Below are positions 12,794 to 55,934 of a stretch of 64,000 bases of DNA, piece by piece. Source of the stretch: Actinospica robiniae DSM 44927 (GTDB taxonomy: Bacteria; Actinomycetota; Actinomycetes; Streptomycetales; Catenulisporaceae); assembly GCF_000504285.1 (NCBI RefSeq), contig NZ_KI632511.1, forward strand, positions 3,593,372-3,657,371. The letters are read 5' to 3'. The position numbers and the translations under genes were made by a program. Under the pieces are notes generated by a model that searched no databases, was not told the origin of the DNA, and saw only the letters and a list, made by a program, of their open reading frames with translations. Each line of letters starts with the position of its first letter. Within the stretch, counting starts at the first letter, position 1.

Positions 12794-13064
12794 CATCTTG
12801 GAGCCAGCTGGCGGCCCTACTGCGAATTGATGATCGGCTGGGTGCTCGTGGGCGAGACGGGCTGCAGTTCAAGACGAAAATCGCTGCCGGCGGGCCCTTC
12901 CTCGGAGAGAGTGCCGGGCCTGCGTGGCTGCTGCCGTTGGAGGGGCGGGCTGAGGTTCGGGATGGTGAGGTAGCGGGGGCGTGCTCTCTCGCCGGAAAAT
13001 ACAACTGTTCGAGGGCATGGCGAAGCGCCCCGGCTGGCCCCGGGGGTTTAGTGTTCGTGTCCTG

Positions 13065-14369
13065 TTATGCCCGGGTGAGGGTGACGGTGTAGCCGAGGTT
13101 TTCCAGGGCGCGTTGGTGGTTGCGGGTGGCGCGGGCCTGGTTGAGGTGGCGTTCGTGCCAGTCGGGTCCGAGGTCGCGGAAGCGTAGGGCGGGGTCGTTG
13201 ATCAGGTGCCAGGCGATCTCGAGGATGTTGCGGGCGATGGCGGTCTGCGCCTTCTTCTTCGGCATATGTCTGATCAGCCGGCGGTAGCGGGCGCCGAGGA
13301 AGGTCTGGCCGCGTTTGGCGCTGTTGGCGGCCTGTCCGAGGGGTCCTTTCAGCCACCGGTTGCCTTTCCCGGTCGGGCCGTGGGTGTTCTTCGACCCGGA
13401 CTGGATGGCGCGCGGGGTCAGCTTCGCCCAGGAGGCGAGGTGGCCGGGGGTGGGAAAGGCGCTCATGTCCAGGCCGATCTCCGCGACGATCGCCTGCGCG
13501 CAGGCGCGCCCGACCCCGGGGATCTCATCGAGGCGTTCGAGCACGCCCATACCGTCCGGGGGCCGGGGGCCGCCCGCCTCGAGGTCCCGGATCCTGCGCT
13601 CGATCTCGGCGTCGAGCTCGGCGATCTGCGCGTCCAGGCGGTCGTTGTTGGCCAGCAGCAGGCGCAGCTGGTAGGCGTGGTGTTCGGTGAAGCGGCCCTC
13701 GAGGGTCTTGCGCAGCGCCGGAATCTTGTTGCGCAGCGTGCCCCGGGCCAGGTCCGCGATCACCGCCGGGGAGCGCTGCCCGCTCACGAGCGCATCGAGC
13801 ATCGCGCGCCCGGAGACCCCGAACAGGTCCGAGGCCTCGAGCGAGAGCTTGATCAGCGCGTCCTCCAAGACCTTCTCCACCCGGTTGCGGTACCGGGTGC
13901 GCTCACCGACCAGCACCTCGCGCAACCGGGTCAGGTCCTGCAACTCCCGCACCGGCCGGGGAGGTATGAACGAGGCGCGCAGCATCCCGCGCTCGGCCAG
14001 CTTCGCCAGCCACACCGCATCGAGCCGGTCGGTCTTGGCCCGGCCCGGCACGTTCTTCACATCCCGGGCGTTGACCAGCCACACCCGCAGCCCACGGGAC
14101 TCGAGCAGGTAGAAGAACGGCCGCCAGTAATCCCCGGTCGCCTCCATCACCACCAACTCCACCCCCTGACACACCAGAAGGTCGCCCAACTCGTTGATCG
14201 CCGAGGTGAGCGCGGCCACCTTCCAGGTCCGCTGCACCCGCCGCGCACCGGCCCCGGGCACCCGCAGACACACCACCGCCGACGCCTTGGCGATATCGAG
14301 CGCTGCCACCCGCTCGACACGCCCGTCGGCTTCCTGCTCATCCCGCCAAACCATCATCTGATCGCCCAT
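13065..14369 (-). CDS. IS110-family DEDD transposase/recombinase
   Basis: 434 residues from ATG 14369, with AAGGAGG 7 nt upstream; the in-frame extension to 14435 lacks a ribosome site. The N-terminal RuvC-like DEDD domain shows the first Asp in ALDIAK, the Glu in VVMEATGDYW, and the final Asp pair in KTDRLDAVWLA. A coiled linker follows (about residues 180-260). The C-terminal Tnp_20 domain has IPGVGRACAQAIVAEIG, GHLASWAKLTPR and the region NRWLKGPLGQAANSA, which holds the catalytic serine in IS110 enzymes. The gene is intact with no frameshift, so the element may still be active. The enzyme should cut and rejoin DNA guided by a structured RNA made from its own non-coding end. Confidence 0.92.
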   Translation of the reverse strand: MGDQMMVWRDEQEADGRVERVAALDIAKASAVVCLRVPGAGARRVQRTWKVAALTSAINELGDLLVCQGVELVVMEATGDYWRPFFYLLESRGLRVWLVNARDVKNVPGRAKTDRLDAVWLAKLAERGMLRASFIPPRPVRELQDLTRLREVLVGERTRYRNRVEKVLEDALIKLSLEASDLFGVSGRAMLDALVSGQRSPAVIADLARGTLRNKIPALRKTLEGRFTEHHAYQLRLLLANNDRLDAQIAELDAEIERRIRDLEAGGPRPPDGMGVLERLDEIPGVGRACAQAIVAEIGLDMSAFPTPGHLASWAKLTPRAIQSGSKNTHGPTGKGNRWLKGPLGQAANSAKRGQTFLGARYRRLIRHMPKKKAQTAIARNILEIAWHLINDPALRFRDLGPDWHERHLNQARATRNHQRALENLGYTVTLTRA

Positions 14370-14614
14370 CAGGGCCTCCTTGCGATCCCGCGCTCCCCCG
14401 AGCCGGCACCCCGTGCCCGCCACCCGACAGGCCACCCGAGGAACGCCAAGTCTCGCCGGCGTGCTCGAAGCAACAAGTCACAGCCCCGGATAGCAGCCCG
14501 TGTCAGACTCCTCGACGGGATACGAAACCCAAGAGAACTCGACCTCACACAGGCGGCGGGCACAAGCCCATTTTCACGCCGTCAAGGCGTCACCGGAAGG
14601 GGACAGGAAGACTC
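14370..14614 (-). ncRNA. Candidate IS110 bridge-RNA region
   Basis: This 245-bp segment lies between the transposase start and the element's end and has no ORF of its own. In IS110-group elements the corresponding segment is transcribed as a bridge RNA whose loops pair with target and donor DNA. It contains GGCGTGCTC (14458-14466), identical to target DNA at 12978-12986 beside the insertion point; a 9-nt match may be chance. The exact RNA ends and loops were not derived. Confidence 0.35.
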
Positions 14615-14757
14615 CTCGGTCGGTCCCCGGAGGCAATCAGGAACCTGCCGGGAGGTCAAGCGGCGGACGGCCTCCGTTGATGCTGGATCTTGCATGGCGC
14701 CGCTTGACCTCCCGGCAGAACCCTGATCGGGCTTCGCCTGCCCGACCGAGGAGAGAG
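14615..14757 (+). repeat. 149-bp hairpin unit A (left terminal repeat split by IS110)
   Basis: The unit's right terminal repeat CCGACCGAGGAGAGAG is at 14742-14757. Its left partner CTCTCTC/CTCGGTCGG is split between 12984-12990 and 14615-14623 by the IS110 element. Internal arms with the 20-bp complementary cores TGCCGGGAGGTCAAGCGGCG and CGCCGCTTGACCTCCCGGCA flank a variable loop. Same orientation as unit C. Confidence 0.8.
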
Positions 14758-14955
14758 CCCACCCCCTGGGGGAGTGGTGCGAGCTGCGCTCGGGCCGGAT
14801 CCCGTCCCGTGGCCCGGCCGCGCTCGATCCGGAAGAATCCTGCATCACCGTTCTGGGCCGCTCTTTTGTTCTCTACTGTTCCAACGCCGGGGAGCGCGCC
14901 CGAGTTCCCCGGAAGTATCCGGAATTCTCTATAACAGGTAAAGGCCGGATTCACG

Positions 14956-14987
14956 GTTTTTGTCGGTGGCGGCGGCTAGCATGGAAG
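14956..14987 (+). promoter_or_regulatory. Conserved core box of the large inverted-repeat element
   Basis: GTTTTTGTCGG, a short gap, then CTAGCATGGAAG is kept almost unchanged at the matching place in the second element (30202-30233), while surrounding bases differ. The arrangement resembles a promoter or protein-binding box, but the 11-nt gap between TTGTCG and TAGCAT does not fit a standard sigma-70 promoter. Short ORFs after it in the two copies do not share a protein sequence. Confidence 0.3.
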
Positions 14988-15089
14988 CGTACGAGGAATC
15001 GGGGCTTGCGTCGGGAGGGAGGTGGACGGGGTGGATGGGCAGATGACGTCAGGGGTGAGGCCGAAGACGGTGCAGGATTTCCCCTCGGG

Positions 15090-16875
15090 GGACTCTGCTG
15101 GCGAAGTCGGGGGTGGTTTGGTTAGGCGGGTTTGCCGATGTGGTGGGTGTCGTAGAGGGCTTGTATACGGGTGGGTCGGCGGGGTTTGGTCTGGGTGGGC
15201 GCGTAGTGCGCGCCGAGGCGTCTGATGTTGATCGCGATGCCGGTCAGGACGTTTTGGAGGTGGTTTTTGGGGAGCCCGCGGTAGCGGGAGTGGCGTAGAT
15301 CGCTGATGCGTACGGCCTGGGAGATGGTGCCCTCGATACCGGCGCGCTGGTTATAAACCTTCTGCCATTCTGGGGTGTGCTGGGTGCGGATCGCGTTCAT
15401 GCGGGCCTCGTAGGGCTCGCGGGGTGAACGACCAGCACGCGTGGCCGAGGGGCCGGCGCGCTCAGACAGGCGGTGCGTAGCGGGCAGGGTGTGCAGTCGC
15501 GGCGGGAGAAGCTGAAGGCGACCAGCCCGTTCTTCTGCCCGCGCATCGGGTTGCTCACCTTCTCGCCCGGGCAGCGGGCGCGCCCGGTGTCCCAGTCGAT
15601 CTCGAACTCGCCGGGCTGAAGGTCCCGGTCTTCGCGCCCCGCCCGCTCGAGACGGTGACCGGCGCGATCAGGGTGATGCCGTGGCCGGCCGCGGCGATGA
15701 GGTTCGCGGCGGTGGGATACCCGGCGTCCATCACATGCACGCCCGGGCCCAGCCCGCGCGCCAGGAGCCGTTCCTGGATATCAGTTGTCTGCGCGGAATC
15801 CTGCACGGTCGCCGCGCTCGTGGCGACATCCGTGACCAGGTGCGGGAGATCCTCGTCGCAGGACTCGGTCAGGTGGACCTTGCCTCCCTCCCACCCGCTC
15901 GCGCGTTTGACCGCGTAGCGGGCATCCGGGTCGTACGGAGAGATCGGCAACTCGGCCGCGGGCGGCAGGTCGGTGACGGCTTTGAGCACCCATCCGCCGC
16001 CCTCACTCCGCTCGAAGTGCTGCTCCCAGACCTGGGCGAGCAGCCGTACCTGCGGCAGCCTAAGGACCCACCCGGCCGTGGGGTCCGCCTTAAGCGTCTC
16101 GAGCAGCAGCGAGCCGTCCGCGCCGAACCGCCCGGCCAACTCCTCCATCGTGGCCTTGCCCCGCCCGCGCCCGATCAGCCGGGAGGTCTCGACCTTGCGC
16201 CCGTACCGCTCCTCCCACCCCGGCGCCAGCAGCGGCACGACCCGCTCCGGAGCGACCCGCGCGATCTCCTCGAGCGCCGCACGCACACTCTCGCCGAGCA
16301 TCTCGACCCGGCCCAGCGAGCGCACCGCCGCGAGCACATGCGTCGAGTCCGTACGCGCCCGCCCGCCCGCGCGCACCAGCCCGGCCGCCTTGAGCTTGTC
16401 CAGCACGGTATCGAGCAGCGCGTCCGCGCGCCCCGGCTCGGCCAGCCGGGCCCGGAACTCGGCCAGCACCGACGCGTCGAACCCGGTCTCAGCCACATCC
16501 AGGCCCAGCGCGTACTTCCACGAGATCCGGTCCGCCATCGCCACCACCGCCTCCCGGTCCGAGAGGTTGTGCAGGAACTGCAACACCGTGACCATCGCCA
16601 GCAACCCCGGCGAAAGCGCGGGCCGGCCGAGCGCCGCAAACATCCCGGCGAACCGCTCGTGCTCGAAATCCTCATCGGCGAACAACGGCCCGAGCGCATC
16701 ACGCACCCGCATCTCGCCCGTGCCCTTCGGATGCACCGCCCACGCCAACGCGGCCGTCGCCGCCGGAACCCCACCAGCCCGCACAGGACGAAACACCACA
16801 AGCCCCTCAATCACCCAGCCGACACGACCACCCAGCCTGCCACAAAATCAGACCACGACTTCGCCAGCAGAGTCC
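15090..16875 (-). mobile_element. Degenerate IS1182-like insertion sequence
   Basis: Terminal inverted repeats GGACTCTGCTGGCGAAGTC (from 15090) and its exact reverse complement (ending 16875) bound the element. TCGG flanks both ends (15085-15088 and 16876-16879), consistent with a 4-bp target duplication. The uninterrupted sequence in the second large element reads CCCCTCGGCGTGCGACC, which confirms the insertion point. The single transposase gene is frameshifted, so the element is dead on its own. Confidence 0.8.
15122..16814 (-). pseudogene. IS1182-like transposase, frameshifted at least twice
   Basis: The first frame (16814 down to about 15620) encodes the N-terminal DUF772-type and DDE domains: RVRDALGPLFADEDFEHERFAGMFAALGRPALSP, SWKYALGLDVAETGFDASVLAEFRARL, the catalytic region ARTDSTHVLAAVR, and MDAGYPTAANLIAAA. 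At about 15610-15630 the reading shifts: the proper continuation (PGEFEIDWDTGRARCPGEKV) is in another frame, followed by CTPCPLRTACLS. A second shift near 15420-15440 leads into the last segment (NAIRTQHTPEWQKVYNQRAGIEGTISQAVR, then SRYRGLPKNHLQNVLTGIAINIRRLGAH) ending at 15122. An intact protein would be about 550 residues. No slippery site suggests programmed frameshifting. Confidence 0.85.
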
Positions 16876-17114
16876 TCGGAGTGCGACCGAGCCGCGCGAC
16901 CCTGCGCGCTGCGGGCACACCGGGTGAATCGCACGAGGGCGATGCAGAATTCTTCCGTGTTGAGCGTGGACGGGCCGCGGGATCCCTTCGCGCGGGTCGG
17001 GGATCGAATTGGTCGGATCAGGATGATGCAGAATCGTTCCGCATGGAGCGCGCTCGGGCCACAGGACGGGACCCGGGCCCGAGCGCAGCTCACACCACTC
17101 CCCCAGGGGGTGGG

Positions 17115-17263
17115 CTCTCTCCTCGGTCGGGCAGGCGAAGCCCGATCAGGGTTCTGCCGGGAGGTCAAGCGGCGCCCTGCACAATCCACCACCATCGACA
17201 ACCACCGCCGCTTGACCTCCCGGCAGGTTCCTGATTGCCTCCGGGGACCGACCGAGGAGAGAG
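17115..17263 (-). repeat. 149-bp hairpin unit B
   Basis: Terminal inverted repeats CTCTCTCCTCGGTCGG (17115-17130) and CCGACCGAGGAGAGAG (17248-17263) are exact complements. Internal 28-bp arms (17147-17174 and 17206-17233) share a perfect 20-bp core and flank a 31-nt loop. Orientation is opposite to unit A: the 'GGCAGGCGAAGCCCGATC' side is on the left. Confidence 0.85.
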
Positions 17264-17524
17264 CACACCCCCGCAACCCCACCACCCCGAATCCCAACCC
17301 GCCCCGTCACGCCAGCACCCACGCAACCCCGGCATCTCTCTCCGAGGGAAGGGCTTGCCAGCGGCGCCTTTCGATCTTGAAACCCCAGCCCGCGCCGCCA
17401 ACGCCACGGGTGGGCGGGTGGCAGCAAACCCGGGCGGCGCGAAGCGCCCGACCACACCCCGACGACCACCCCGACCCGGCAGGCCATCAGGCCTCACGAA
17501 CACCCAGCCGATCATCAAGTCGGG

Positions 17525-18343
17525 TTAGAGCTGCGTGCCGACGCGGGCAAGGCTGTCGCGGCGTTCTTCGGCTTGGCAGGATGCTGGAAACCCGCCGCCG
17601 GTGAGGGCCGCAACCATATCGCGGTACTCGGTGCCTCCCGGGAGGTCCGGTTCGCGGTGCAGCTGGCGGCGGATCACCGTCACGCGCGTTTGATCCCGCG
17701 GGTCGTATCCGTCCCTTTCCACGGTCTCGAACCACATGCCGACCCCGCGCCGCTGCCATGCCGGGCGCTCCTCGAACGCGGGACCGTAGTCGGCCAGGGC
17801 TTCCTCCTTGGCGCCGCGGGCCATTGCCTCCATGCGACGCTGCGCCTGCCGCGCGGTCAGGCCGTTCTGGCGAAGCGCCCAGTAGAGGCAGGTGTTGAGG
17901 GCGTTGCGCTGGGCGTCGGCTTGGCGCCAGGCGAAGTAGTCGACGACGTCGCCTACTGCGTCACCGGTCCAGATGCGCGAGTCGAAGGAGACGCTTTGCG
18001 CGGCAGCGTGGGTGAAGGCGGCGCTTGCGGTGGCGGCGCTGAGCGAGACGAGCTTCTCCACGCTCCGGCCGAAGGAGCCGTCAGAATGCGCCAGGAGCAA
18101 GGAGATCTCGTCGCTCTGCGTGTAGACGTAAAGGCCGGCGAACTCCTCGATCATCGCAGCGGCCGTGGTGGCCATGAGTTCGCCGAACCGGTCGTCGAAG
18201 GGCTTGCCGAAGTGCGCATTGGTCAGGGACGTGAACCCCCGGCCGTCCACGCGGATGACGATCCACTGTCCCTCGGGGACGGACAGCGCGTGGTACCGCT
18301 CGCGTTCGCGCTGTGCGGCCTCGAGCTCGCTGAACTTCACCAC
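17525..18343 (-). CDS. Thg1-like tRNA-His guanylyltransferase / 3'-5' RNA polymerase
   Basis: 272 residues from GTG 18343 (a second GTG is the next codon), preceded by GGGAGGTG. Thg1 signatures are plain: IVIRVDGRGFTSLTNAHFGKPFDDRF, with the catalytic metal-binding Asp in the VDGRGF strand, then YVYTQSDEISLLLAHSD with the second acidic pair, SFDSRIW, and DVVDYFAWRQADAQRNALNT. Eukaryotic Thg1 adds G-1 to tRNA-His in the 3'-5' direction; bacterial homologues (TLPs) repair truncated tRNA 5' ends and are sporadic in bacteria. The last 40 residues are a basic tail that ends 2 bp beyond the large repeat element. No obvious partner gene lies beside it, so a general RNA-repair role is the best inference. 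Confidence 0.88.
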   Translation of the reverse strand: MVKFSELEAAQRERERYHALSVPEGQWIVIRVDGRGFTSLTNAHFGKPFDDRFGELMATTAAAMIEEFAGLYVYTQSDEISLLLAHSDGSFGRSVEKLVSLSAATASAAFTHAAAQSVSFDSRIWTGDAVGDVVDYFAWRQADAQRNALNTCLYWALRQNGLTARQAQRRMEAMARGAKEEALADYGPAFEERPAWQRRGVGMWFETVERDGYDPRDQTRVTVIRRQLHREPDLPGGTEYRDMVAALTGGGFPASCQAEERRDSLARVGTQL

Positions 18344-18452
18344 GCACCTCCCGCGTTCGGATCGCTTCAGTCTCGCGTATCCGCCATCGCAGGGGCCAAC
18401 GAATAGCGACGGAGACGTCTGAGACCAACGGCTGGCCGCGACGGGAGCGCAT

Positions 18453-18875
18453 TCAGCGGCACATGGCCCTAGCGAGAAGCGCCGCTTGTTCGCGTACGCT
18501 GCCCTGCCATCCGTCGCCGAACCCCGTTTCGGCACCGACCTGCACATCGTGCAGGCTGCTCGCGGCGGTCAACGGCTCCGGCCAGCGCAAGCTGGCACCG
18601 GCGCGCTCGGCCAGGACGACGCATGTGGCGATGAAGCCGTCGGAGAGCGCCGTCATGACGGTGTGGTTCGTGCGGCTGCGCCAGTCCAACAATGTGCTGA
18701 CGAACTCTCCGAGGAGGGCGCCGTCGACCTCGGCCTCGTCCTCCTCCATCGGGCCGATCCCTGAGGTCATACCGATCTGGGCCTCGAATACGCTCGCCTG
18801 CTGCAAGAACAACCCCGATGCGCCGTTCGACGGGCTCCACAACGCCACGTCTGCCAGCCGAAAATACTGGCTCAT
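18453..18875 (-). CDS. Small conserved actinobacterial protein (resembles DUF6086)
   Basis: 140 residues from ATG 18875, with GGAAGGAG upstream. It starts MSQYFRLADVALWSPSNGASGLFLQQASVFEAQIGMTSGIGPMEEDEAEVD and continues as helices (LLGEFVSTLLDWRSRTNHTVMTALSDGFIATCVVLAERAGASLRWP). The opening 'YFRL-DVALWSPSNGAS-LF' resembles a family of short Streptomyces proteins listed, as I recall, as DUF6086; the function of that family is not known to me. No membrane segment. It is followed, 110 nt on, by the Thg1-like gene on the same strand and is divergent from the dioxygenase operon. Confidence 0.6.
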   Translation of the reverse strand: MSQYFRLADVALWSPSNGASGLFLQQASVFEAQIGMTSGIGPMEEDEAEVDGALLGEFVSTLLDWRSRTNHTVMTALSDGFIATCVVLAERAGASLRWPEPLTAASSLHDVQVGAETGFGDGWQGSVREQAALLARAMCR

Positions 18876-29500: not shown

Positions 29501-29848
29501 ATTCGTGTGCGCGCACCACCCGTGAACCGCGGCCATGGGTACGGCTACGGCCGCGGATACGGCTGCGGCTGTGGGTACGGAGACAGCCACGGCTTATTGC
29601 GATTTGATGATCGGCTGAGCGCTGGTGGGGCGTGGGATGACGTGTCAGGTCAGGGTGAGGGCGGCCGCTTCGCGTCGCCCGTTTCGTCTGACCACCCGCC
29701 CACCCGTTGCGTTGACGGGGCGACCTGCAGTTTCAAGACGAAAAACGCCGCTGGCAGGCCCTTCCCTCGGAGAGAGTGCCGGGTTCGCGTGGGTGCTGGC
29801 GTTGGCGGGGCCGGCTGAGGTTCGGGGTGGTCGGGTGCCGGGGGTGGG

Positions 29849-29997
29849 TTCTCTCCCCGGCCGGTCCCCGGAGGCAATCAGGAACCTGCCGAGAGCTCAA
29901 GCGGCGGAGATTTCCGCTCATGCTCGATCTTGCATCGCGCCGCTTGACCTCCCGGCAGGTTCCTGATCGGGCTTCGCCTGCCCGACCGAGGAGAGAA
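29849..29997 (+). repeat. 149-bp hairpin unit C
   Basis: Terminal repeats TTCTCTCCCCGGCCGG (29849-29864) and CCGACCGAGGAGAGAA (29982-29997) pair with two mismatches. Internal 28-bp arms at 29879-29906 and 29938-29965 pair with two mismatches around a 31-nt loop. Same orientation as unit A. Confidence 0.85.
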
Positions 29998-30201
29998 CCC
30001 ACCCCCTGAGGGTACGAGTCTGAGCCGCGCTCGGGCCGAGTCACGTCCCGCGGCCCGGCCACGCTCGATGCGGAAGGATTCTGCATCGCCGTTCTGTCTG
30101 GGCCGCCGTCTTCTTCTCTACTCCTTCAACGCCCGAGAGCCCGCCCGAGTGCCCGGAAATCTCCATGATTTTTGCTTATCCAGCGAAAGGACGGATTCGC
30201 C

Positions 30202-30233
30202 GTTTTTGTCGGTAGTGGCATCTAGCATGGAAG
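30202..30233 (+). promoter_or_regulatory. Conserved core box, second copy
   Basis: Matches the box at 14956-14987: GTTTTTGTCGG, a gap, CTAGCATGGAAG. Conservation between elements whose neighbouring bases differ suggests selection or recent spread. Function unknown. Confidence 0.3.
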
Positions 30234-30645
30234 GGTACGAGGGTCAGGGCTTGTGACGGAAGGGGCGGTGAACGCGATGGCTGCGCTGATGGCGGCGGGA
30301 CGTGGCCGAGAACGGTGCAGGATTTCCCCTCGGCGTGCGACCGAGTCGCACGATCCTGCGCAGTGCGTGAGCACCGGGCGGAACCGACCGGGGCGATGCA
30401 GAAACCTTCCGCACCGGGCACGGCCGGCCTGCAGGATTGCGCCGCGAGATCCGGGATCGGAGTCGATCACGCCGAGGCCATGCAGGATCTGACATCAGCG
30501 CGACCCGAGCACCGACCCTCCGCGCGGATCGAGGACCGGGACGGCCGGATCACAGCGATGCAGAATCCTTCCGCATCGAGCGTGGCCGGGCCACGGGATG
30601 GGTCTGGGCCCGAGCGCAGCTCGCACTAGACCCTCAGGGGGTGTG

Positions 30646-30794
30646 TTCTCTCCTCGGTCGGGCAGGCGAAGCCCGATCAGGGTTCTGCCGGGAGGTCAAG
30701 CGGCGCGATGCAAGATCCAGCACCAACGAGGGCCACCGCCGCTTGAGCTCCCGGCAGGTTCCTGATTGCCTCCGGGGACCGACCAAGGAGAGAG
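30646..30794 (-). repeat. 149-bp hairpin unit D
   Basis: Terminal repeats TTCTCTCCTCGGTCGG (30646-30661) and CCGACCAAGGAGAGAG (30779-30794) pair with two mismatches. Internal arms share the 20-bp core except for one base (TTGAGCTCCC in the right arm). Orientation matches unit B and is opposite to unit C. Confidence 0.85.
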
Positions 30795-30796
30795 GG

Positions 30797-30896
30797 CTCG
30801 GGGGCTCGTGGCCTCACCCTGTCGGTGGGAAAGTCCTTATGCTGCATAATTAATAGATCATGCTCTGAACTGGGCCTCCGTGGGACTTTCGTCTCA
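30797..30896. other. AT-richer insertion inside arm D with short inverted repeats
   Basis: Compared with arm B, arm D has about 100 extra bases just after its hairpin unit. They include GAAAGTCC (30829-30836) and GGACTTTC (30883-30890) around an AT-rich centre (GCATAATTAATAGATCATG), unusual in this GC-rich DNA. It looks like a minute insertion element or its remnant. Confidence 0.45.
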
Positions 30897-31275
30897 GCAC
30901 ACCCCCGACACCCGACCACCCCGAACCCCAGCCCGCCCCGCCAACGCCAGCACCCACGCGAACCGGCACTCTCTCCGAGAGAAGGGCCCCCGCCGGAGGC
31001 GAAATCTTGAAACCCCAGCCCACCCCGCCAAAGCAACGGGTGGGCAGGGCGGGCAAACGAAACCGAGGGCGGAGCGAAGCGGCCGCCCACACCACAACGA
31101 CCACCCCGACCCGACAGGCCGCGACGCTCCACGAGCACTCAGCCGATCATCAAATCGCTCTAAAGGCCACGGCTAAGGCCACCGCTGCGGCTGCGGCCAC
31201 CGGCGGGCAGAAAGACACGGCGGCCGGGACGTCTACCGTCCCGGCCGCCGTGATCCGTACCGCCACGCTGTGCCG

Positions 31276-33597: not shown

Positions 33598-36500
33598 TCA
33601 GTGGGTCCGCAGCCGCGCGGCCAGGAACCGGGCGATTTCGCGGCCGGAGCGGCCGTTGGTCAGGGCGACCACGCCGTCGCCGGCCCGCAGCAGCGCGGAG
33701 ACGGTGGCGCGGTAGCCGGGCATCTCGCCGCCGTGGCCGTATTCGAGGTCTGCGCCGTCGTCGTCCACGACCGTGCCCAGGCCGTAATGCGCCCCCGGAT
33801 GCGGGGTGAGCATCTCGGCGGCCAGTTCGCGGGTGAGCACCCTGCCGCCGTCCCCGAGGTAGGCCGAGCGCACCTCGATCACGGCCCGGGCCAGGTCCGG
33901 CGCGGTGGTCCACAGCCCTGCCGCGGCCGTGTCCGGGCGCACCCGCCAGCCGCCGGGCACCGGGACGCCGGCCTCGTCGTGCCCGGCCGCGACCGGCCGG
34001 CCGCACCGGCTCGGGAAGTCCGGCTCGAAGCCGCTTCCGGCCATGCCCAGCGGATCCAGGACGAGCTCGCGGATCAGGTCGGCGAACGGCGTGCCGGTCC
34101 GGTCCTCGATCAGCTGCTGCAGGACCGCGTAGTTGACGTTGGCGTTCTCGAAGGCGGTGCCCGGGGCCCGGTCGACCCGGACCGGCGGGGTCCGGAACGG
34201 CGGACGCCCGTCGAGCAGGTCGGGCAGGCCGGGCAGGGGCTCGTCCGGCGCGAACACGGTGTTCTCCACCGGGGTCAGACCGGACAGGTGGCCGAGCAGC
34301 CGGCGCAGGCTCACCGCCCGACGCCCGGGCACCCGCCACGAGGTCAGGTAGTCGTTGATGTTCCGGTCGAACTCCAGCCGGCCGTCCCGGACGAGGCTGA
34401 GCGCGCCGAGGACGGAGACGAACTTGCTGACCGAGCCCACCTGGAAGACCGTGTCCGCGGTCGCCGGTTCGGCGCCGTCGGCCCGCAGCACCCCGAAGGC
34501 GCGCGCTTCCGCGATCTCGCCGCCCTCGATGAGCGCGATCGCCACGCCCGGAACGTGGTGCTCGGCCATGGTGGCCGCCGGGGACGGGATTCGCAGCCCG
34601 CGACCGCGCGTACTTGGGACGGCCGCGGCTTCCGGTGCGGCCGCGTCGGCGAGGGCGGCCGGGTCGGCCGCCCCGGGTTCGGTTCCCGGCTGCGGCACGC
34701 GGGCGGCGAACTGCTCCAGGGTGAGGTCTTCGTAGAACATCCGCAGCGACAGAGCCAGGCCGGCCTGCTGTGCGTCGGCGATTACCTGGATCAGCCGGAT
34801 CGAGTCGCCGCCGAGGTCGAAGAAGCGGTCTTGCGCGCCGACCCGGCCGATTCCCAGGACCCGGCCCCAGATCTCGGCCAGCGCGCACTCCACCGGCGTA
34901 CTCGGAGCGACGTACTCGACCCGGGCGGTGGCGCTGTCGCCGGGGTCGGGCAGGGCCCGCTTGTCGAGTTTGCCGTTGGGCGTGAGCGGCAGAGCAGGCA
35001 GGGTGACGAAGGCGGTCGGCAGCATGTACTCCGGCAGGGTCCTGGCAAGCGTGGCCCGCAAGGCGGACGGGCTCAGGGGATCGTCTGCGGCGTGATCCGC
35101 AGCGGAATCCGCTGAGTCGGGGTCAGGTGCGGGGGCTGCTGCGGACGAGGTGGTCAGGTAGGCCACGAGTCGTTTGTCGCCGGGGGTGTCCTCGCGCACC
35201 ACGACGACCGCGTCGCGGATCCCGGGCACCGCGGCCAGAGCCGCCTCGATCTCACCCAACTCGATCCGGTACCCGCGAATCTTGACCTGGTCATCGATCC
35301 GGCCGCAGAACTCCAGCCGGCCATCCGGCAGACGCCGAGCCAGATCACCACTGCGATACAGCCGGGAACCGGGGGCACCGCCGAACGGATCGGGAACGAA
35401 CCGCTCCGCCGTCAGCTCCGGACGCCCGAGATAACCGCGCGCCACACCGGGACCACCGACATAGATCTCACCCGGCACGCCCTCGGGCACCAGGTTGCCC
35501 TGCCCGTCGAGCAGGTAGACGCGCAGGTCCGCCAGGGGCCGGCCGATCGGGTTGCCGGCGTTCGGCGCCAGGTCGGCGCGCACGATCCGGTGATAGGTGG
35601 TGTGCACCGTCGTTTCGGTAATCCCGTACATGTTGACCAGGGCGACCCTGGCGAGGCTGTGCCGGGCGACCCAGGGGGCGAGTTCGGCGAACTCCAGCTT
35701 CTCCCCCGCGAACACCACCGCCCGCAACGACAACCGATCGATCCGCGGATCACCCTCACCCGCCAACCGCACCAACCCCCGAAACGCCGACGGCGTCTGA
35801 TTCAACACCGTCACCCCATGCCCCACCAGCAAATCCAGAAAATCATCCGGCGACCGCGTCACACCCCGCGGCACCACCACCAGACGACCACCCTGCAACA
35901 ACGCACCCCACAACTCCCACACCGACACGTCAAACGCATACGAATGGAACAACGGCCACACATCCGACTCATCAAACCCATAATGCTCCTGAGCCGACGA
36001 CAACAACCGCACCACATTCCCATGCGACAAACACACCCCCTTCGGCCGACCCGTCGACCCCGACGTATAAATCACATACACCAAATCATCCGGACCCCCC
36101 GACACCCCCAGATCCGAACCCGACAAACCCTCCAGATCCTCCTCATCCAACACCACCACCACACCCCCGAAATCAGCAGGCAGACACCCCCGACCCACCG
36201 AATCCGTCACCACCACCGACACACCCGCATCCCCCACCATGAACCCCAACCGCTCCACCGGCTGCACCGGATCAAGCGGCAAATAACCAGCCCCCGACTT
36301 CAACACCCCCAACAAAGCCGGCACCAAATCCAACCCCCGCTCCAAACACACCCCCACCACACACTCACGACCCACACCCAACCCCACCAACCGACGCGCA
36401 ATCCGATTCGCCCGCACATTCAAACCCGCATACGACAACCCCACACCCTCAAACACCACCGCCACCGCATCCGGCGACACACGCACCCGCTCCTCGAACA

Positions 36501-39500
36501 GCTCGTGCAAACGGTGGGTCACCTTGGCCACGGCCGGCTGCGAGGCCCCGCCGCTGATCAGCCGATCGCGTTCGCCGGCGGGCAGATACGTCGCCTGCGC
36601 GTCGCCGTCGGGGTCGGCGGCCATCGCCTCCAGCACCGCGCGGTACATGCCGGCCAACCGGTCGAGGTTCGCGCGGCTGAGCGCGGCGGTGGTCGTGGTC
36701 AGGTCGAGGCGGCCGCCGACGCTGATGACGGACAGGGCGAACTCGCTGTCGCCTTCGCCCAGGCTCACCTCGGTGGCGCCGATCCCGGCGACACGGCCGG
36801 AATCGCCGCCGCCGACCGCGCCCGTCGCGGCCCGCGCGGCACCGGAGAAGTCCTGGTAGTTGAACAGCACCTCGATCAGCCGCTGCCGGTTGCCGCGCTG
36901 AATCGCGGGCATCGGGTAGCGGCGGTGCGGCCAGAGCTCGACCTCCTGGTCGAACACGTCGCGGATCAGATCGCGCCAGGTGCGCGCGGACCGCTGGTAG
37001 ACGAAGGGCAGGGTGTTGAGGAACATACCCTGGATCCGGTCCGCCCCGGCCCGTTCCGGCCGCGCGTCGCAGACCAGGCCCGCGTGGAACGCGACCTCTC
37101 CCGTCAGCTGACTCAGTACCTTGAGGTGCGCGGCGTGCAGCACGGCCTTGAGCGAGACCCGGCCGGCGGTGGCGAGCTCGCGCAGCCGCTCGTCGAGGTC
37201 GCGCAGGTCGACCTCCCCGTGCAGCGGAGTCGCAGTGCCCTGCTCGCCCCACCCGGGCAGTGTGAACCGGGCGGCGCCGGACACGACGCCGGTCCAGTAC
37301 GCCTGGTCCTCCGGTGAGGCCAGCGCCTCGAGCTCCCCGGCGATGAAGTCGGCGTACCGCACGTCCGGCAGCGCAGGCAGATCAGGGGCCTGACCGTCAC
37401 GGATCCGCTGGTAGGCCTTGATGACCTCCTCGAGCAGCAGGGCACTGCTCCAGCCCTCGGTCACGGCGTGGAAGATCGTGAACGTCAGCCACCAGGTGTC
37501 ATCGGAGGCCAGGTGCGCCGCGACACGCACCAGCGGCGCGTTGCCGATCTCGAAGCGGTCGGCGCGCTCGGCGGCCACGTACGCGGCCAGCGCCGCGGAC
37601 TGCTCCTGTGGCGGCAGGCCCCTCCCGTCCTCGACCACGATCCGCGGTTCGGCCGCCTCGTGCACGAGCTGCAAGGGCGTGGCGTAGCCGCTCAGCGCGA
37701 AGGAGGTGCGCAGGATCTCGTGCCGGTCGACGATCGCGCGGACCGCGGCGGCGAACGCCTCCGGTTCGAACGGCCGGGTGTCCCGGATCTGCTGGGACAG
37801 CACGCTCTGGTACGCGCCCGGACCCTCGCCGGCCATCAGCTCGAACACCATGCCGAGCTGGATCTGGGACAGCGGGTAGGCGTCGGCCAGACCCGGCGGC
37901 AGGGCCGCCCGGTCCGCCACGGAAAGCAGCGCGAACGGCTCGACCGCGGCGGCACGCGCAGCGGCGCCGGCCGAGGCGAGCGGGGTGAGCGCGGCGGCGA
38001 GTTCCGCGACCGTGCGCAGCGCGAACACCTCCCGGACCGAGGTGGCGTATCCGGCCGAGTGCAGCGCGCCGACCAAGGCGATGGCGCGCAGCGAATCACC
38101 GCCGAGGTCGAAGAAGCTGTCCTCGACGCCGACGCGGTCCACGCCGAGCACCTCGCGCCAGATCGCGGCGACCTGCTCCTCTCGCGGGTCGCGCGGGGCG
38201 ACGTACTGGCCCACCGGGAAGTCAGAGGGCTGCGGGGCGGGCAGCAGGCCGCGGTCCACCTTGCCGGTCGGGCCGAGCGGCAGGACATTGAGCGCGACCA
38301 GGGCGGCCGGGACGAACGCGGCCGGCAGCGCCACGGCGAGCAGCGAGCGCAGCTGCGCCGGCGCGGGCGTCGCGTCTCCGGGCCGCGGCACGTAGTAGCC
38401 GACCAGGCTGCGACGGCCCTTGTCGGTGCGGACCACGACGACCGCGTCGGTGACGCCGGGGCAGCCGCGCAGGGCCGCCTCGATCTCGCCCGGTTCGATC
38501 CGCACGCCGTGCAGTTTCACCTGAGCGTCGACACGGCCGAGGAAGTCCAGGGTGCCGTCCGGGCGCCAGCACACTGCGTCGCCGGTCCGGTAGAGCCGAG
38601 CGCCGGGGCCGTCCGGCGAGCCCGCCTGCGGTTCGGGCGCGAACGGGTCGGGCACGAACGCGGCGGCGGTCAGTTCCGGCGAGCCGTAGTAGCCGCGGGC
38701 CAGGCCGACGCCGCCGAGGTACAGTTCGCCGCGCACTCCGGCCGGCACCGGGCGCATGTCCTCGTCGAGGACGTAGAGCCGCACGTTCGGGTGCGCCCGG
38801 CCGAGCGGGACGCGGGAGAGCCCTGCCAGTTCCTCGGCAGTGCACTGCCAGGCGGTGACGTCGATCGACGCCTCCGCGGGCCCGTAGGCGTTGAACACGG
38901 CGCAGTCGGGCAACGCGGCGGTCAGCGTCCGGGCGAGGTCCACCGGGAACTCCTCGCCGCCGAAGCACAGGCTGCGCAGTCCGGTGCACTCGGCCAGGCC
39001 GGCCGCCAGCAGCGGCGCCAGCAGGGTCGGCACCGCGTCGACGGCGGTGACTCCCTCGGCTGCGATCAGGTCGCGCAGGTAGCGCGGGTCCCGATGCCCG
39101 CCCGGCGCGGCCAGCACCAGCCGGGCGCCGACGGACAGCGCGGCGAGCACCTCGCCGACGGCGACGTCGAAGCCGATCTCGGTCTTGACCAGCTGGGCCG
39201 AGCCCGGCTCGAGCCGATAGACCTCCCGGGCCACGTAGTCGATCCGGTTGGCCAGGGCGGCATGCGAGTTGACCACGCCCTTGGGGCGTCCGGTCGATCC
39301 CGAGGTGTAGACGACGTAGCAGGTGCCGGCCGGGTCGGCCGTGCGGACCGGGTCGGTGGCCGGCATCTCGGCCCAGGGCGCCGGGTCCGCGAGCGCGATC
39401 AGCCGTGCCGGGCCGGCCGGCAGGGCCGAGCGCCCGGACGGATCGCAGAGCACGATGGGGGCCTCGATCTGCTCGAGGATGAAGGCCAGGCGTTCGGCGG

Positions 39501-42500
39501 GCAGTGTCGGGTCGAGCGGCACGTAGCCGCCGCCGGCCTTGATCACCGCCAGCAGCGCGATCACCTGCTCCACCGAGCGCTCGGCGCACACTCCGACCAG
39601 GACCTCGGGCCCGACGCCGAGGGCGCGCAGGTGGTGGGCCAACCGGTTGGCACGGGCGTTGAGCTCGCCATAGCCGAGCCGGGATCCGTCGTCGACCACG
39701 GCGACCGCGTCCGGGTCGGCGGCCGCCCGGGCTTCGAAGGCCTCGTGGGCGAGCCGGGGCTCGCCCGCGCCGGTCACCGCGTGGTTCGGGGCGTAGGCCC
39801 ACTCGCCCAGGATCCGCTCGAGCTCCCCGGCGGGCAGGTACACGGCTCGGGCGTCGCCGTCCGCATCAGCGGCGATCGCCTCCAGGACGGCGCGGTACAT
39901 GCCGGCCACCCGGTCCAGGCCGGACTGACTCATCACCCTGCCATCGGCGGCCAGATTGACGAAGCCGCCCGCGGTGCTCACGCTGAGCCCGAACTCGGTA
40001 GCGCCCTGCTCGTCGCTGGCCTGGATGTCCACCGCGCCGAGGTCCACCTGGTGGAAGTCGGTGAAGTCGAAGACCACGTCGAGCGGGCCGAGGCCGGTGG
40101 CCCGGCGGATCGCCGGCAGCGGGTGGCTACGGTGCGGCCAGAGCTCGACCTCGCGGTCGAAGGCCTGGTGGACGAGCTCCCGCCAGGTCGCCGCGGTGCG
40201 CTCGACGGCAAAGGGCAGGGTATTGATGTACATTCCGTTGACCTTGTCGGCGCCGAGCACCTCGGGCCGCGCGTCGCACACCAGGCCGCTGGAGAAGGAA
40301 CGCTCCGACGTCAGCTGGCCGAGCACCTTCAGGTGCGCAGCGTGCAGCACGGACTTGACCGAGACGCGTTCGGCCGCGGCGAACGAGCGCAGGGCAGCGT
40401 CGAGGTCGTGGTAGGCGACGCGGGCGTGTGCGGCCTCCGCCGCAGCGTGCGCCTCGCCCCAGCCCTCGGGTAGGACGAAGGCCGGATAGCCTTCGGCGAT
40501 CGCCCGCCAGTAGCTCTGGTCCTCGGCCGACTCCAGCGAGGCGACTTCGGCCGCGATGAAGTCGGCGTAGCGCACGCCGGTCCCGGCCGCCTCGGGCTGC
40601 TCGGCCGCGGTCCCGTCGCGGTGTGCGCGGTAGGTGCGGACGAACTCCATCAGCAGGGTATTGAAATCCCAGCCGCCCGTGACGAGGTGGCTCACCGCGA
40701 TGGTCAGCCACCACGCCTCGTCGGTCTCGACGTGCGCGGCGACGCGCAGCAGCGGCGGGGCCTGGTCGAGGGCGAACGCGTTCGAACGTTCGGCGGCCAC
40801 GAACTCCTCATGGCCGCCCATGTCCGGGTGGACCACGACGGCGGCCGAGACCTCGCCGTGCACCAGCTGGAGCGGCACTGAGTATCCGGCGGTCGCGAAG
40901 GACGTGCGAAGCGTCTCGTGCCGGTCGACGAGTTCCTGCACGGCGGCGCGCAGTGCGGCCTCTGCGAAGGGGCGGTCGTCGCGGATCCGGAAGGAGGAGA
41001 CGATGTGGTAGAGCGTGCGCCCGGTCGCGTTCTGCGCCGCGACCGCCATGCCGAGCTGCGCCTGCGCGGCCGGATAGGCGTCGGTCACGCCTGGTGGCAG
41101 CAGCCTGCGATCAGCCTCGTCGATCAGGGCGAAGGGAGCGACCGGAACGAAGCGCGCGGCGTCGCCGGCCGCCGAGGCCGGGCGGGCGTCGAGCAGCTCG
41201 GCGAGCCGGGCCACGCTCTGGTACTGGAACACGTCCCGTACCCCGAGGTCGAAGCCGGCCAGCCGCAGCGCGCCGACCAGTGCGACCGCGCGCAGCGAGT
41301 CGCCGCCGAGTTCGAAGAAGCCGGCGTCCACGCCGACCCGCTCCAGGCCGAGCACTTCGGCGTAGATCTCGGCCAGGCGCCGCTCGGTGGCGGTGGCCGG
41401 CTCGCGTCGGCCGACCTGATCGCCGAGCGCGGCCAGGTCCGGGGCGGGCAGGGCGCGCCGGTCGAGCTTGCCGGTGCTGCCCAGGGGGATCGCCTCGAGC
41501 CGGACGAAGAACGCGGGCACCATGTAGTCCGGCAGCCGCACGCCGAGCGCGCTGCGCAGCACGGCGATGTCCGGGTCACACCCCTCGGCCGGCACGTAGT
41601 AGCCGACCAGGCTCTCCCCGCGCGCCACCGCCACCGCCTCGCGGACGCCCGGCTGCGCGGCCAGGACCGCGCTGATCTCGCCGAGCTCGATCCGGTAGCC
41701 GCGGATCTTGACCTGGTCGTCGATCCGGCCGAGGAAGTCGAGGCCGCCGTCCGCGCGCCGCCGGGCCAGGTCGCCGCTGCGGTAGAGCCGCTGTCCGGCG
41801 GCGAACGGGTCGGGTACGAACCGCTGCGCGGTCAGCTCCGGCCGGTTCAGGTAGCCGCGGGTCACCCCGGGCCCGCCGACGAAGATCTCGCCGGGCACAC
41901 CCAGCGGCACCAGGTCGCCTTCCGGGCTCAGCAGGTGGAGCGTCAAGTCGTCGATCTTCCGGCCGACCCGGCTGGGCGCGCCAGAGGCGAAGTCGCTCTC
42001 GTCGAGTCGGTAGTAGGTGGTGTGCACGGTGGTCTCGGTGATGCCGTACATGTTGATCAGCTGGGGCCGGTCCAGGCCGAGCCGCCCGGCCCACGGGGCC
42101 AGTTCGGCCGGTTCCAGCTTCTCGCCGGCGAAGACGACCGCGCGCAGGTCCAGACGCTCCAGCCGGGCATCGCCCTGAGCCGCCGCGGCGGCCAGCGAAC
42201 GGAACGCCGACGGGGTCTGGCACAGGATGGTGGCGCGGTGCTCGACCATCAGCTCGAGGAAGTCCTCAGGCGAGCGGGCGACGTCGAAGGGCACGACGAC
42301 CAGGGTGCCGCCGTGCATCAGCGCGCCCCACAGCTCCCAGACCGAGACGTCGAAGGCGTAGGAGTGGAACAGGGTCCAGACATCGTGCTCGTCGAACCCG
42401 TAGTCGTCGCTGGTGCTGGTGAACAGCCGGTGCACGTTCGCGTGGGTGACGCATACGCCCTTGGGCCGACCGGTCGAGCCGGAGGTGAAGATGACGTACA

Positions 42501-53900: not shown

Positions 53901-55934
53901 GGCGTTGCTCGCGGGAAGGTCGACCACGCGCAGCTCCACCGGTCCGGGTGCCCCGGGGTACTGCAAGGGCTGTCCCTCGACGGTCGTGTAGTGCGTACGC
54001 AGCGCCTCGTGCCGCACTTCGAGCGCGTCCAGAGCGCGCTGCACGGTGAGCACGTCCAGGTCGGCCGGCAGCCGCAGGAACAACGGCGCGACCCACTCCC
54101 GGCTGCCCGGGTGCATCTGGTCCAGGAACCACAACCGCTGCTGACCGAAGGAGAGCGGCAGCCCTCGGCCGCGCGGCAGCAGCGGGATCGCCGCCGCGGC
54201 GCCCTCTCCGCCGTCGCCGGCCCCAGCGCTCTCCGCCAGCAGCGCGGCCTGTGCGCGCACCGTGGTCGCGGTGAACAGCTTGCGCGGCTCGATGGCCGCG
54301 CGGCCGCCCTCGATCAGGCGGCCGGCCAGCCGGGCGAGCACCAGCGAGGAGCCGCCGAGCTGGAAGAAGTCGTCGTGCGCGCCGACCCGCTCGATCCCGA
54401 GCAGGTCCTGCCAGGCCTCGGCGACGAACCGCTCCTCCGGGGTGCTCGGCTCGACGAATCCACCCTGCTCGGCCGGCTCCACGATCGCGGCCAGCGCAGC
54501 GCGGTCCACCTTGCCGTTGGGCGTCAGCGGGAATCGCTCGACCGAGCGGAAGACAGCCGGGATGACCGCCTCAGGCAGCCGTCCGACCAGGTACTCACGC
54601 AGCTGCCCGGGCGGCACCGGCTCTGCGGTGCGTACGTACGCGGCCAGCCGGGTCGCGCCGGATTCGTCCTTGAGGCCGACCACGGCGGCGCCGCGCACCT
54701 GCGGGTGTCCGGTCAGCACCGCCTCGATCTCGCCCGGCTCGATCCGCACGCCGTTGACCTTGAGCTGGTCGTCGACCCGGCCGAGGTACTCCAGGCTCTG
54801 GTCCGCCCGCCAGCGCGCCCGGTCGCCGGTGCGGTAGAGCCGGGAGCCCGGCTCGCCGAACTCGTCCGGAACGAACCGGTCCGCGGTCAGCGCGGGCTGA
54901 TTCAGATAGCCGCGCCCCAGGCCGCGGCCGCCGAGGTACAGCTCGCCGGCCATACCGACCGGCACCGGCTCGCCGGCCGGGTCGAGCACCACCACGTACA
55001 GGTTCTCGATCGGACGGCCGATCGGCACCGGCCCGGTCAGCTGCGCCGGGTCGAGCCGGTGCGCGGTGGCGTCGATGGAGCACTCGGTCGGGCCGTAGGT
55101 GTTCCACAGCGCGAAGTCGTGGCCGGCCAGCAGCCGCTGGCACAGCTCGGCGTGCAGGGCCTCTCCGGCGGAGAAGACCAGGCGCAGCGACGAGCACTCG
55201 CGCCAGGCCGGCTCCTCGGCGAGCAGCCGGTACACCGAGGGCACGCCCTGCAGAACCGTGATCCGCTCGTCGCGCACCGCCCGGGCCAGTGCCGCCGGGT
55301 CGCGCTCGGCTCCGCGCGGCGCCAGCACCACGCAGCCGCCGGAGCTGAGCGGGCCGAAGAATTCCCAGCAGGCAGCGTCGAATCCGATCGAAGTCTTCTG
55401 CAACACCCGGTCGGCCGGGCCCAGGCCGTGGCGGCGCACGGTCCACCCCACCCGGTTGCCGATGCCCTCGTGGGTGACCACGACGCCCTTCGGCCGGCCG
55501 GTCGAGCCCGAGGTGTACACGATGTACGCGGCGGCGTCCGGCTCGATCCGCACCCGCGGATCGCTGTCCGGGCAGCGCTCGAGCGCGGTCCAGTCCGTGT
55601 CCGCGTCCAGCACGACCTTCGCGGCGGTGTCCTGCAGGATCCACTCGCGCCGAGCGGCCGGATAGGCCGGGTCGATCGGCACGTACGCGCTGCCGGACCG
55701 CCATACCCCGAGCAGGGCGACGACGAGGTCGAAGCCGCGTTCCAGGCACACCGCCACCGGCACCTCGGGGCCGGCCCCGAGGTCGCGCAGGTGGTTGGCC
55801 AGGCGGTTGGCCCGGGCGTCGAGCTGCGCGTAGCTGTGGACGAGGCCGCCGTCGAGGACCGCGGCCGCCTGCGGGGTGCGCGCGGCCTGCCGGGCGACCT
55901 GGTCGTGCAGCAGGACGGGCGAGATCGTGCTCAT
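50970..55934 (-). CDS. Two-module initiating NRPS (A-T-C-A-T)
   Basis: 1654 residues from ATG 55934 (AGGAG upstream). A1 residues 1-500, T1 about 530 ([10 protein letters not shown]), C about 593-1040 with the standard [10 protein letters not shown]2 about 1058-1540, T2 about 1582 ([11 protein letters not shown]). No condensation domain precedes A1, so this enzyme starts the chain, or receives an acyl cap from the free-standing C protein at 58313-59752. Pocket codes by eye: A1 DAWQFATIDK, close to the Gln code DAWQFGLIDK; A2 DLPKVAEVGK, close to Asn DLTKLGEVGK and Asp DLTKVGHIGK. A2 is the likely substrate site for a SyrP-like hydroxylase. The C-terminus is a short acidic, Ala-rich tail that may dock to the next NRPS. 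The stop overlaps the start of the five-module NRPS by ATGA. Confidence 0.95.

What the first reader, a model, noticed from the sequence alone, without database searches (positions are those of the whole stretch)
29599..31158. A roughly 1.56-kb inverted-repeat element with nested hairpins and no transposase gene
Perfect 21-bp inverted ends, homologous arms in opposite directions, one 149-bp hairpin per arm and a conserved core make a nested palindrome unlike ordinary insertion sequences. It lies between the ends of convergent genes, as does the other copy (12822-17522). A giant bidirectional terminator, a chromosome-organising site or a transposase-dependent passenger element are all possible. 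This is the best candidate for something undescribed.
Basis: partly seen in the sequence, partly recalled or inferred. Interest (0 to 1): 0.8.

Follow-up and report, generated by a model that had tools for sequence, protein, structure and literature searches.

The report
Palindromic transposon that lost its gene
A 1.56-kb gene-less palindrome, present in about 80 copies in one actinobacterial chromosome, appears to be a transposon remnant that lost a nuclease gene, is moved by a borrowed enzyme, and often lands on the stop codons of genes.

Summary
The element (29597-31160) is one of at least 80 copies or remnants in a 9.9-Mb Actinospica-like chromosome. Thirty near-intact copies give a 1,474-bp consensus: 508-bp inverted arms (96.7% identical) around a 457-bp core, without a conserved ORF. 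Ends read YTA-NN-GCGADTTGATGATCGGCTGRG. Rebuilt targets are YTAR, mostly CTAG; a sister genome holds one empty site. Similar ends bound IS630-type insertion sequences in this genus. Five sister copies carry an HNH-nuclease gene of the DUF222 kind between the arms. Best explanation: a non-autonomous, IS630-mobilised deletion derivative of a palindromic DUF222-HNH element. Copies favour convergent gaps (45 of 78), and 20 of 36 testable insertions hit a stop codon exactly, so target choice plus selection can explain the convergent-gene pattern without a terminator role. Unexpected: arm hairpins show strong compensatory changes between subfamilies. Which enzyme moves the element, and why the hairpins are conserved, is inferred, not shown.

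The parts
29597..31160 (.). Palindromic non-autonomous element (window copy), 1,564 bp including the variable terminal dinucleotides
29595..29596 (.). TA, left copy of the inferred target duplication (rebuilt target TTAA)
   Evidence: (L074)
31161..31162 (.). TA, right copy of the inferred target duplication
   Evidence: (L074)
29599..29619 (+). Left terminal inverted repeat, 21 bp, perfect
31138..31158 (-). Right terminal inverted repeat, 21 bp, perfect
29597..30092 (+). Left arm (508 bp in the consensus; limits here approximate)
30552..31160 (-). Right arm, inverted copy of the left arm, with an extra ~103-bp insertion at about 30794-30896
29840..30006 (+). Hairpin of the left arm; stem near invariant among copies and compensated between subfamilies
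30637..30803 (-). Hairpin of the right arm (approximate limits; this one was not in the alignments because of the extra insertion beside it)
30093..30551 (+). Core; in the consensus its first part (about 491-707) is homologous to the region upstream of the HNH gene in gene-bearing copies; the gene itself is missing
12820..17525 (.). Second window copy, interrupted by two inserts; TA at 12818-12819 and 17526-17527; rebuilt target CTAG = stop codon of the gene at 17525-18343 (-)
   Evidence: L073
12997..14611 (-). Insert of 1,615 bp in the second copy, IS110-type (transposase ORF 13065-14435)
15094..16871 (-). Insert of 1,778 bp in the second copy, DUF772-type transposase (ORF 15555-16814)

Best explanation
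The feature is a non-autonomous transposable element, a very large MITE-like palindrome. Its ancestor was an element of two inverted ~0.5-kb hairpin-bearing arms around a DUF222-HNH nuclease gene; the window copy belongs to a lineage from which that gene was deleted. An IS630 (Tc1/mariner-type) transposase acting in trans most likely recognised the ends, cut the element out and joined it to a TA in YTAR, preferably CTAG, duplicating the TA. In this genome tolerated sites of that kind are often the TAG or TAA stop codons of genes, and insertions near promoters were probably lost, so surviving copies sit mainly between convergent genes. Shown: the family, its ends, the target motif, one empty site, gene-bearing relatives, and IS630s with similar ends. 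Inferred: the identity of the moving enzyme, the direction from gene-bearing to gene-less, and selection as the reason for the gap bias.
For: At least 80 copies or remnants in one chromosome. End logo over 122 ends: T 0.90 and A 0.84 at the TA, two free bases, then GC. In the 36 of 79 copies that have TA at both ends, the outer bases give YTAR in 36 of 36, CTAG in 22. G002 aligns in one piece, without the 1-kb element, across one insertion point. Of 32 IS630 loci inspected (of 48 matches in 14 genomes), two have ends like the element's: L186 of G002, found by its own perfect 24-bp TIRs (16 of 22 compared bases at each end), and L131, a remnant of the same subgroup in this genome (17 of 23). 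[quoted passage not shown] Five copies carry the HNH gene, and the compact core keeps a 74-75% match to the region upstream of it. L072 and L092 are 98.9% identical at different sites.
Against: No intact IS630 with matching ends was found in this genome; the five PF13358 matches include only a rearranged remnant with such an end. End similarity to the IS630s is 16-17 of 22-23 bases, not identity, and the best single-end matches in other IS630 loci, searched by similarity alone as L131 was, reach 14 of 23. TA at both ends was the selection criterion of the 36 copies; 43 of 79 were left out. The size, 1.3-1.6 kb, exceeds usual MITEs. Hairpin stems are far more conserved than loops and outer arms, which plain decay of dead copies does not predict. 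One of four tested loci gave a clear empty site; the other three gave no match across the junction.
Confidence: 0.8

Rival explanations
1. The DUF222-HNH protein, not an IS630 transposase, moves or spreads the element: it cleaves YTAR targets with a 2-base stagger or homes into them, and the hairpin arms are its recognition structures. The compact copies are parasites of the gene-bearing ones.
For: Of the six PF02720 genes of this genome five lie between two inverted arms and one (L202) has an arm on one side; of three in G001 (Actinospica acidithermotolerans) one has both arms, one has an arm on the side not cut by the contig end, and one (L203, cut by a contig end) showed none. Hairpins covary. 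No intact IS630 partner was found in the genome.
Against: 30 DUF222 loci from 30 other genomes of the class have no flanking inverted arms, so the protein does not generally go with them. IS630-type ends and TA duplication fit a known enzyme. No solved relative was found for the DUF222 part; matches below E 0.1 were all to HNH regions. The fold prediction was too poor to use (mean pLDDT 49).
Confidence: 0.12
2. A giant bidirectional transcription terminator or insulator kept by the host between convergent genes.
For: 45 of 78 copies lie between convergent genes, beyond YTAR availability (44 of 276; p about 1e-12); hairpin stems are conserved and, between subfamilies, compensated.
Against: 29 of 78 copies lie in tandem and 4 in divergent gaps; the window genes have hairpins of their own outside the element; the end sequence was found in almost no relative; many copies are interrupted by inserts.
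Confidence: 0.05
3. A chromosome-organising or replication-related site.
For: Many copies, large palindromes, uneven spread with only 3 of 79 between 5.0 and 7.5 Mb.
Against: Irregular clusters, end sequence nearly absent from relatives, one recent transposition. Orientation along the chromosome was not tested.
Confidence: 0.02

Closest known systems
RUP of Streptococcus pneumoniae, proposed to be mobilised by IS630-Spn1 (PMC2229807, passages)
   Same: Gene-less repeat whose TIRs resemble those of an IS630, insertion at TA, 108 intergenic copies
   Different: RUP is 107 bp; here 1.3-1.6 kb with 508-bp inverted arms, covarying hairpins and sisters that carry an HNH gene
IS630 family: ISY100 (PMC2170065, passages; its reference list holds the title of Tenzen and Ohtsubo 1991 on TA in CTAG)
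   Same: TA duplication, CTAG preference (from that title), two terminal bases where the 5' cut lies inside the end
   Different: No transposase gene inside; far longer inverted arms
REP13E12 / HNH endonuclease / DUF222 repeats of Mycobacteria (PMC10589994, passages; otherwise recalled)
   Same: Repeated DUF222-HNH gene
   Different: I recall no inverted arms or IS630-type ends there, and did not test mycobacterial copies by name; 30 loci from 30 other genomes of the class had none
REP/BIME elements with RAYT transposases (PMC2817692, search listing; otherwise recalled)
   Same: Palindromic, extragenic repeats in high copy number; landing sites for insertion sequences (recalled)
   Different: REPs are short (recalled); here long arms with TIR-TA ends. 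No RAYT was sought

Membership tests
IS630/Tc1-mariner non-autonomous element (MITE-like) | TA target duplication | tested here: met
   End logo over 122 ends; 36 of 79 copies with TA at both ends; empty site for one copy
IS630/Tc1-mariner non-autonomous element (MITE-like) | CTAG/YTAR target preference | tested here: met
   36 of 36 YTAR, 22 CTAG, among copies with TA at both ends
IS630/Tc1-mariner non-autonomous element (MITE-like) | TIRs shared with an IS630 of the same lineage | tested here: met
   Similar, not identical: L186 (G002) 16 of 22 at each end, L131 (own genome, one end) 17 of 23; other TA-flanked TIR pairs found in these loci at most 10
IS630/Tc1-mariner non-autonomous element (MITE-like) | Intact cognate transposase in the same genome | tested here: not met
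   PF13358 gives 5 matches; the only one with a like end is a remnant
IS630/Tc1-mariner non-autonomous element (MITE-like) | Mobilisation in trans by the transposase | not testable with these tools
   needs an excision/insertion assay
Classical MITE | Small size (a few hundred bp; recalled) | tested here: not met
   30 copies of 1.28-1.61 kb
DUF222-HNH (13E12-type) element | DUF222-HNH gene present | tested here: not met
   No ORF above 153 aa lies within the window copy and only the upstream stretch of the gene-bearing copy matches it; present in 5 sister copies
Autonomous insertion sequence | Own transposase gene | tested here: not met
   No conserved ORF in 30 copies; transposases inside larger copies lie in inserts
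Intrinsic bidirectional terminator | Stem plus T-run on both strands ending flanking transcripts | tested here: inconclusive
   3 plus-strand terminator-like sites and no minus-strand site within the element; shuffles of the region give 1.2 on average; no transcript data

The most novel reading that the evidence does not exclude
Actinospica hosts a new type of selfish unit in which a DUF222-HNH nuclease and two structured palindromic arms form one system: the nuclease acts on the extruded arm hairpins, whose pairing is under selection, and IS630-like ends supply integration at stop codons; the ~80 gene-less palindromes are its satellites. This would give the widespread DUF222-HNH proteins a defined mobile context.
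Probability: 0.2. Interest if true: 0.85.

Novelty: new variant of a known kind. Interest (0 to 1): 0.55.

Why it matters
DUF222 genes occur in 90 of 118 sampled genomes of the class, and the domain has no assigned function (Pfam name); here they sit inside a transposon-like unit with defined ends, which makes their role testable. A long palindrome with compensated hairpins that survives in about 80 chromosomal copies is also a natural test of how actinobacteria tolerate large inverted repeats. Insertion at stop codons gives a simple mechanistic reason for a repeat between convergent genes, a pattern easily read as a terminator or organising site.

Tried and rejected
Known RNA family: Rfam at E up to 1 gave nothing in the element. 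The exact 21-bp end in named genomes, the 19-bp end in viral contigs and the element in plasmids and phages gave nothing; these tools may leave out this genome. IS630 copies L127 and L129/L130 were considered as the partner; L129/L130 have other ends, and for L127 no TIR pair and no similar end was found. Within-copy likeness of arms in the main family was tested: 0.858 within a copy (32 copies) against 0.851, 0.862 and 0.856 between copies, so the arms are alike because the founder's arms were; in other subfamilies the two arms of one copy are 93-98% alike (L200, L206, L207). Covariation within the main family is nearly absent (1 of 49 pairs); it appears between subfamilies and species (19 of 43 pairs). 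Correction of one stem by the other could give the same pattern. Structure prediction of the DUF222-HNH protein was too poor to use. Empty-site query: four loci joined, one clear empty site (L087a in G002), three without a match across the junction; in G001 the L087a flanks matched as two pieces close together, the left one of only 25 bp.

Weak points of method: gene calls come from a home-made coding model, not checked against annotation; copy counts are lower bounds because the DNA searches scored at most 40 candidates and the pattern search listed 100 of 119 sites; 43 of 79 copies were left out of the target test because an end was truncated, diverged or without TA; 5 of 127 ends were dropped from the logo. 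The alignment A2 leaves out two of 60 hairpins (left of L108, right of L074). A3 holds 16 sequences that I chose: 5 main-family hairpins and 11 of related elements. In the flank test some ORF limits were off; flanks under 400 nt were used for L223, L240 and L202, which may be why L202 failed. Its mismatched control had 6 of 150 pairs at 40 bits or more: four between Actinospica loci, but two between other loci (492 bits for L226 with L234, which are of one genus; 40 bits for L231 with L236).

Full report
1. What is there. The window lies in a single 9,918,887-bp contig (G000:C1:3593372-3657371). One genome of the same genus, G001, has contigs of the same lengths as Actinospica acidithermotolerans MGRD01-02 (51,763 and 68,529 bp), so G000 is taken to be an Actinospica; its species name was not obtained. 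The reported element has perfect 21-bp inverted ends, inverted arms and a hairpin per arm. Counting two free terminal bases on each side it spans 29597-31160, with TA on both sides.

2. Copies. The 19-base end occurs at 119 sites in the chromosome with up to 3 mismatches and at none when read backwards; 113 such sites fell in the 78 stretches that I fetched. These stretches hold 79 copies or remnants (the shortest are 116, 960 and 1,028 bp), and one more copy outside them is listed at 4,291,807. Thirty have both ends 1.28-1.61 kb apart. Oriented by the core and aligned, they give a 1,474-bp consensus whose first 508 bases match its last 509 in reverse at 96.7%. Pairwise identity is 78-99%, median 83%. 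L072 and L092 are 98.9% identical with different flanks, so movement has been recent at least once. Arms differ as much within a copy (mean 0.858) as between copies (0.851-0.862), as expected if the copies descend from a founder with nearly identical arms.

3. No gene in the compact form. None of 16 consensus ORFs of at least 90 codons is open in more than 12 of 30 copies. Larger copies hold inserts: 50 segments of 0.7-4.5 kb lie between element pieces. Five of the 50 hold the HNH gene of section 4, and one (L087) is the interval between two copies. Representatives of the others, tested by Pfam, gave transposases of IS110, IS3-like (rve with HTH), IS4, DUF772, Mutator, ISL3, IS30-like (rve with HTH_38), DDE_Tnp_1_4 and IS630 (DDE_3) kinds, some gave no family, and two gave ordinary genes (CobN in L087, DUF4241 in L095) (IS family names beyond the Pfam names are recalled). 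Several inserts use one position of the element again and again.

4. Gene-bearing relatives. In G001 two inverted hairpin arms bracket a 409-aa DUF222-HNH ORF. In the present genome five main-family copies (L037, L048, L051, L091, L103) hold a homologous gene between consensus positions 707 and about 956; the L048 gene is interrupted by an insert. The L103 protein gave DUF222 (45.6 bits) and HNH (26.9 bits); L037, L091 and L051 gave only HNH at E up to 0.001, although L037 and L103 are 94% identical. PF02720 has six matches in this genome, one of them the L103 copy. L200, L204 (the L103 copy), L205, L206 and L207 have inverted arms on both sides of the gene; L202 has an arm match on one side only. 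Of the three G001 loci, L199 has both arms, L201 one, L203 none; the last two are cut by contig ends. The compact core keeps a stretch (consensus 491-707) that is 74-75% identical to the region upstream of the gene, so the compact form looks like a deletion derivative; the opposite direction was not tested. Thirty DUF222 loci, one from each of 30 other genomes of the class, showed no inverted flanks (best 31 bits); 6 of 7 Actinospica loci scored 145-596 bits. In the mismatched-flank control 6 of 150 pairs reached 40 bits: four between Actinospica loci and two between others, one of these at 492 bits between two loci of one genus. The 30 loci are the best match of each genome, not all its copies.

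5. Ends and target. Over the 122 ends kept by the filter (of 127) the logo reads Y-C-T-A-N-N-G-C-G-A-D-TTGATGATCGGCTGRGTG; CTA in 74 and TTA in 20. Of 79 copies, 36 have TA at both ends; their outer bases are Y and R in all 36, and CTAG in 22. For one copy (L087a) the joined flanks align to G002 in one piece with small gaps near the junction. There the target CTAG is the stop codon of a minus-strand methyltransferase-like gene (L087 7014-7805 in the calls of 39 as printed; Pfam), where G002 reads TGA in the same frame (my reading). The other three loci in that query gave no match across the junction.

6. Moving enzyme. I inspected 32 IS630 loci (of 48 PF13358 matches in the 14 genomes of the family; 34 locus ids, two redundant). 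The 1,134-bp L186 of G002 has perfect 24-bp TIRs flanked by TA; 16 of 22 compared bases of each end match the element. L131, a rearranged remnant in this genome, matches at one end at 17 of 23, and its end and transposase C-terminus resemble L186. Other TIR pairs matched at 10 or fewer; not every locus gave a pair, and single ends picked by similarity reach 14 of 23 elsewhere. A second DUF222-HNH subfamily has TTA-AT-GC-TGATTGATG at the left of L206 and L207 and CTA-AT-GC-TGCTTGG at the right of L206, again TA-NN-GC; the right end of L207 does not show it. [quoted passage not shown] That paper's reference list holds the title of Tenzen and Ohtsubo 1991 on TA in CTAG. RUP of pneumococcus is the nearest described case that I found (PMC2229807, passages).

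7. Why convergent genes. With home-made gene calls, 45 of 78 copies lie in convergent, 29 in tandem and 4 in divergent gaps, and none inside a called gene (the 79th copy lacked a neighbour). Non-genic YTAR sites in the same stretches are 44 convergent, 122 tandem and 110 divergent of 276 (odds ratio 7.2, p about 1e-12). Twenty of 36 rebuilt targets are exactly a stop codon of a coding ORF, against 60 of 318 YTAR sites that are not inside genes (p about 5e-6). The window copy itself sits in a TTAA that is not a stop codon by this test; the second window copy sits in the TAG stop of its right-hand neighbour. The likely reading is target choice plus loss of insertions near promoters; an active preference is not excluded. 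Each gene beside the window copy has a perfect hairpin of its own outside the element.

8. The hairpin. Among 58 arm hairpins of the main family stems are near invariant while the loop varies, and only 1 of 49 pairs has a change on both sides. Between subfamilies and species (16 chosen sequences), 19 of 43 pairs show changes on both sides, 94.9% of cells pair, and none of 500 shuffles reaches the covariation score, though the number of further pair types is not above shuffles (200 of 500); slid controls pair at 38-48%. This points to selection on pairing, or to correction of one stem by the other. It is the part of the story without a shown mechanism.

9. Spread of the family. The end sequence with up to 1 mismatch is in 1 of 394 genomes of the class, this one; with up to 2 mismatches in 2 of 14 genomes of the family, the second (G003) with a single site. 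Pieces related to the arms are in G001 and G002; 6 of their 9 places lie at contig ends, so drafts may under-count them. Weak matches also occur in G003, G004, G007, G011 and G013 and were not followed. Nothing was found in plasmids, phages, viral contigs or, for the exact 21-mer, named genomes.

10. Literature. Searches for DUF222 with HNH endonuclease and repeat; IS630, MITE, stop codon and palindrome (62); 13E12 or DUF222 (79, 25 of 44 listed); Actinospica with insertion sequence (80); IS630, CTAG, TA dinucleotide, non-autonomous (81); REP13E12 or HNH (84, 8 of 3,057 listed); stop codon, convergent genes, terminator and MITE terms (85); DUF222 with mobile element (101); foldback transposon, IS630, long inverted repeats (102). 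In the listings, and in passages of three papers, I saw no description of this element. The library holds open-licence papers only.

Verdict: an IS630-type non-autonomous element of unusual size and structure, derived from a DUF222-HNH palindromic element. The anatomy and target are shown, the enzyme is inferred.

Noticed in passing
L031, L053, L087, L088, L094, L107 (consensus 116-118), L095 (100/116); L051, L062, L088, L099, L106 (356-364); L073, L103 (270-272): Different inserts each reuse their own position in the arms. 11 of 22 IS110 copies of the genome (24 matches, merged by me) lie inside element spans, which make up 2.0% of the chromosome including inserts. The palindromes act as landing sites.
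   Followed up: partly
window 30794-30896: An AT-richer insertion of about 103 bp in the right arm of the window copy; in the fetched loci its only other match is 44 bp at the edge of that region beside an IS110 insert in L062.
   Followed up: partly
window 17525-18547 (-): The gene beside the second copy matches Thg1 (tRNA-His guanylyltransferase) families, uncommon in bacteria as far as I recall.
   Followed up: no
window 33598-50973 and 50970-55934 (-): Two very long ORFs (5,791 and 1,654 aa) near the element, not identified by any search.
   Followed up: no
L188, L190, L191, L193, L194, L195 (G001, G002 contig ends): Draft contigs of related genomes end at pieces of these elements (6 of 9 places), so palindromes may fragment Actinospica assemblies.
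   Followed up: partly
genomes of the same order: DUF222 was found in 90 of 118 class genomes but in none of the 7 other genomes of the same order that were listed (8 genomes without a match were not listed).
   Followed up: no
A2 columns 70-100: The hairpin loop varies in shared combinations of a few variants, as if copies exchange pieces.
   Followed up: no
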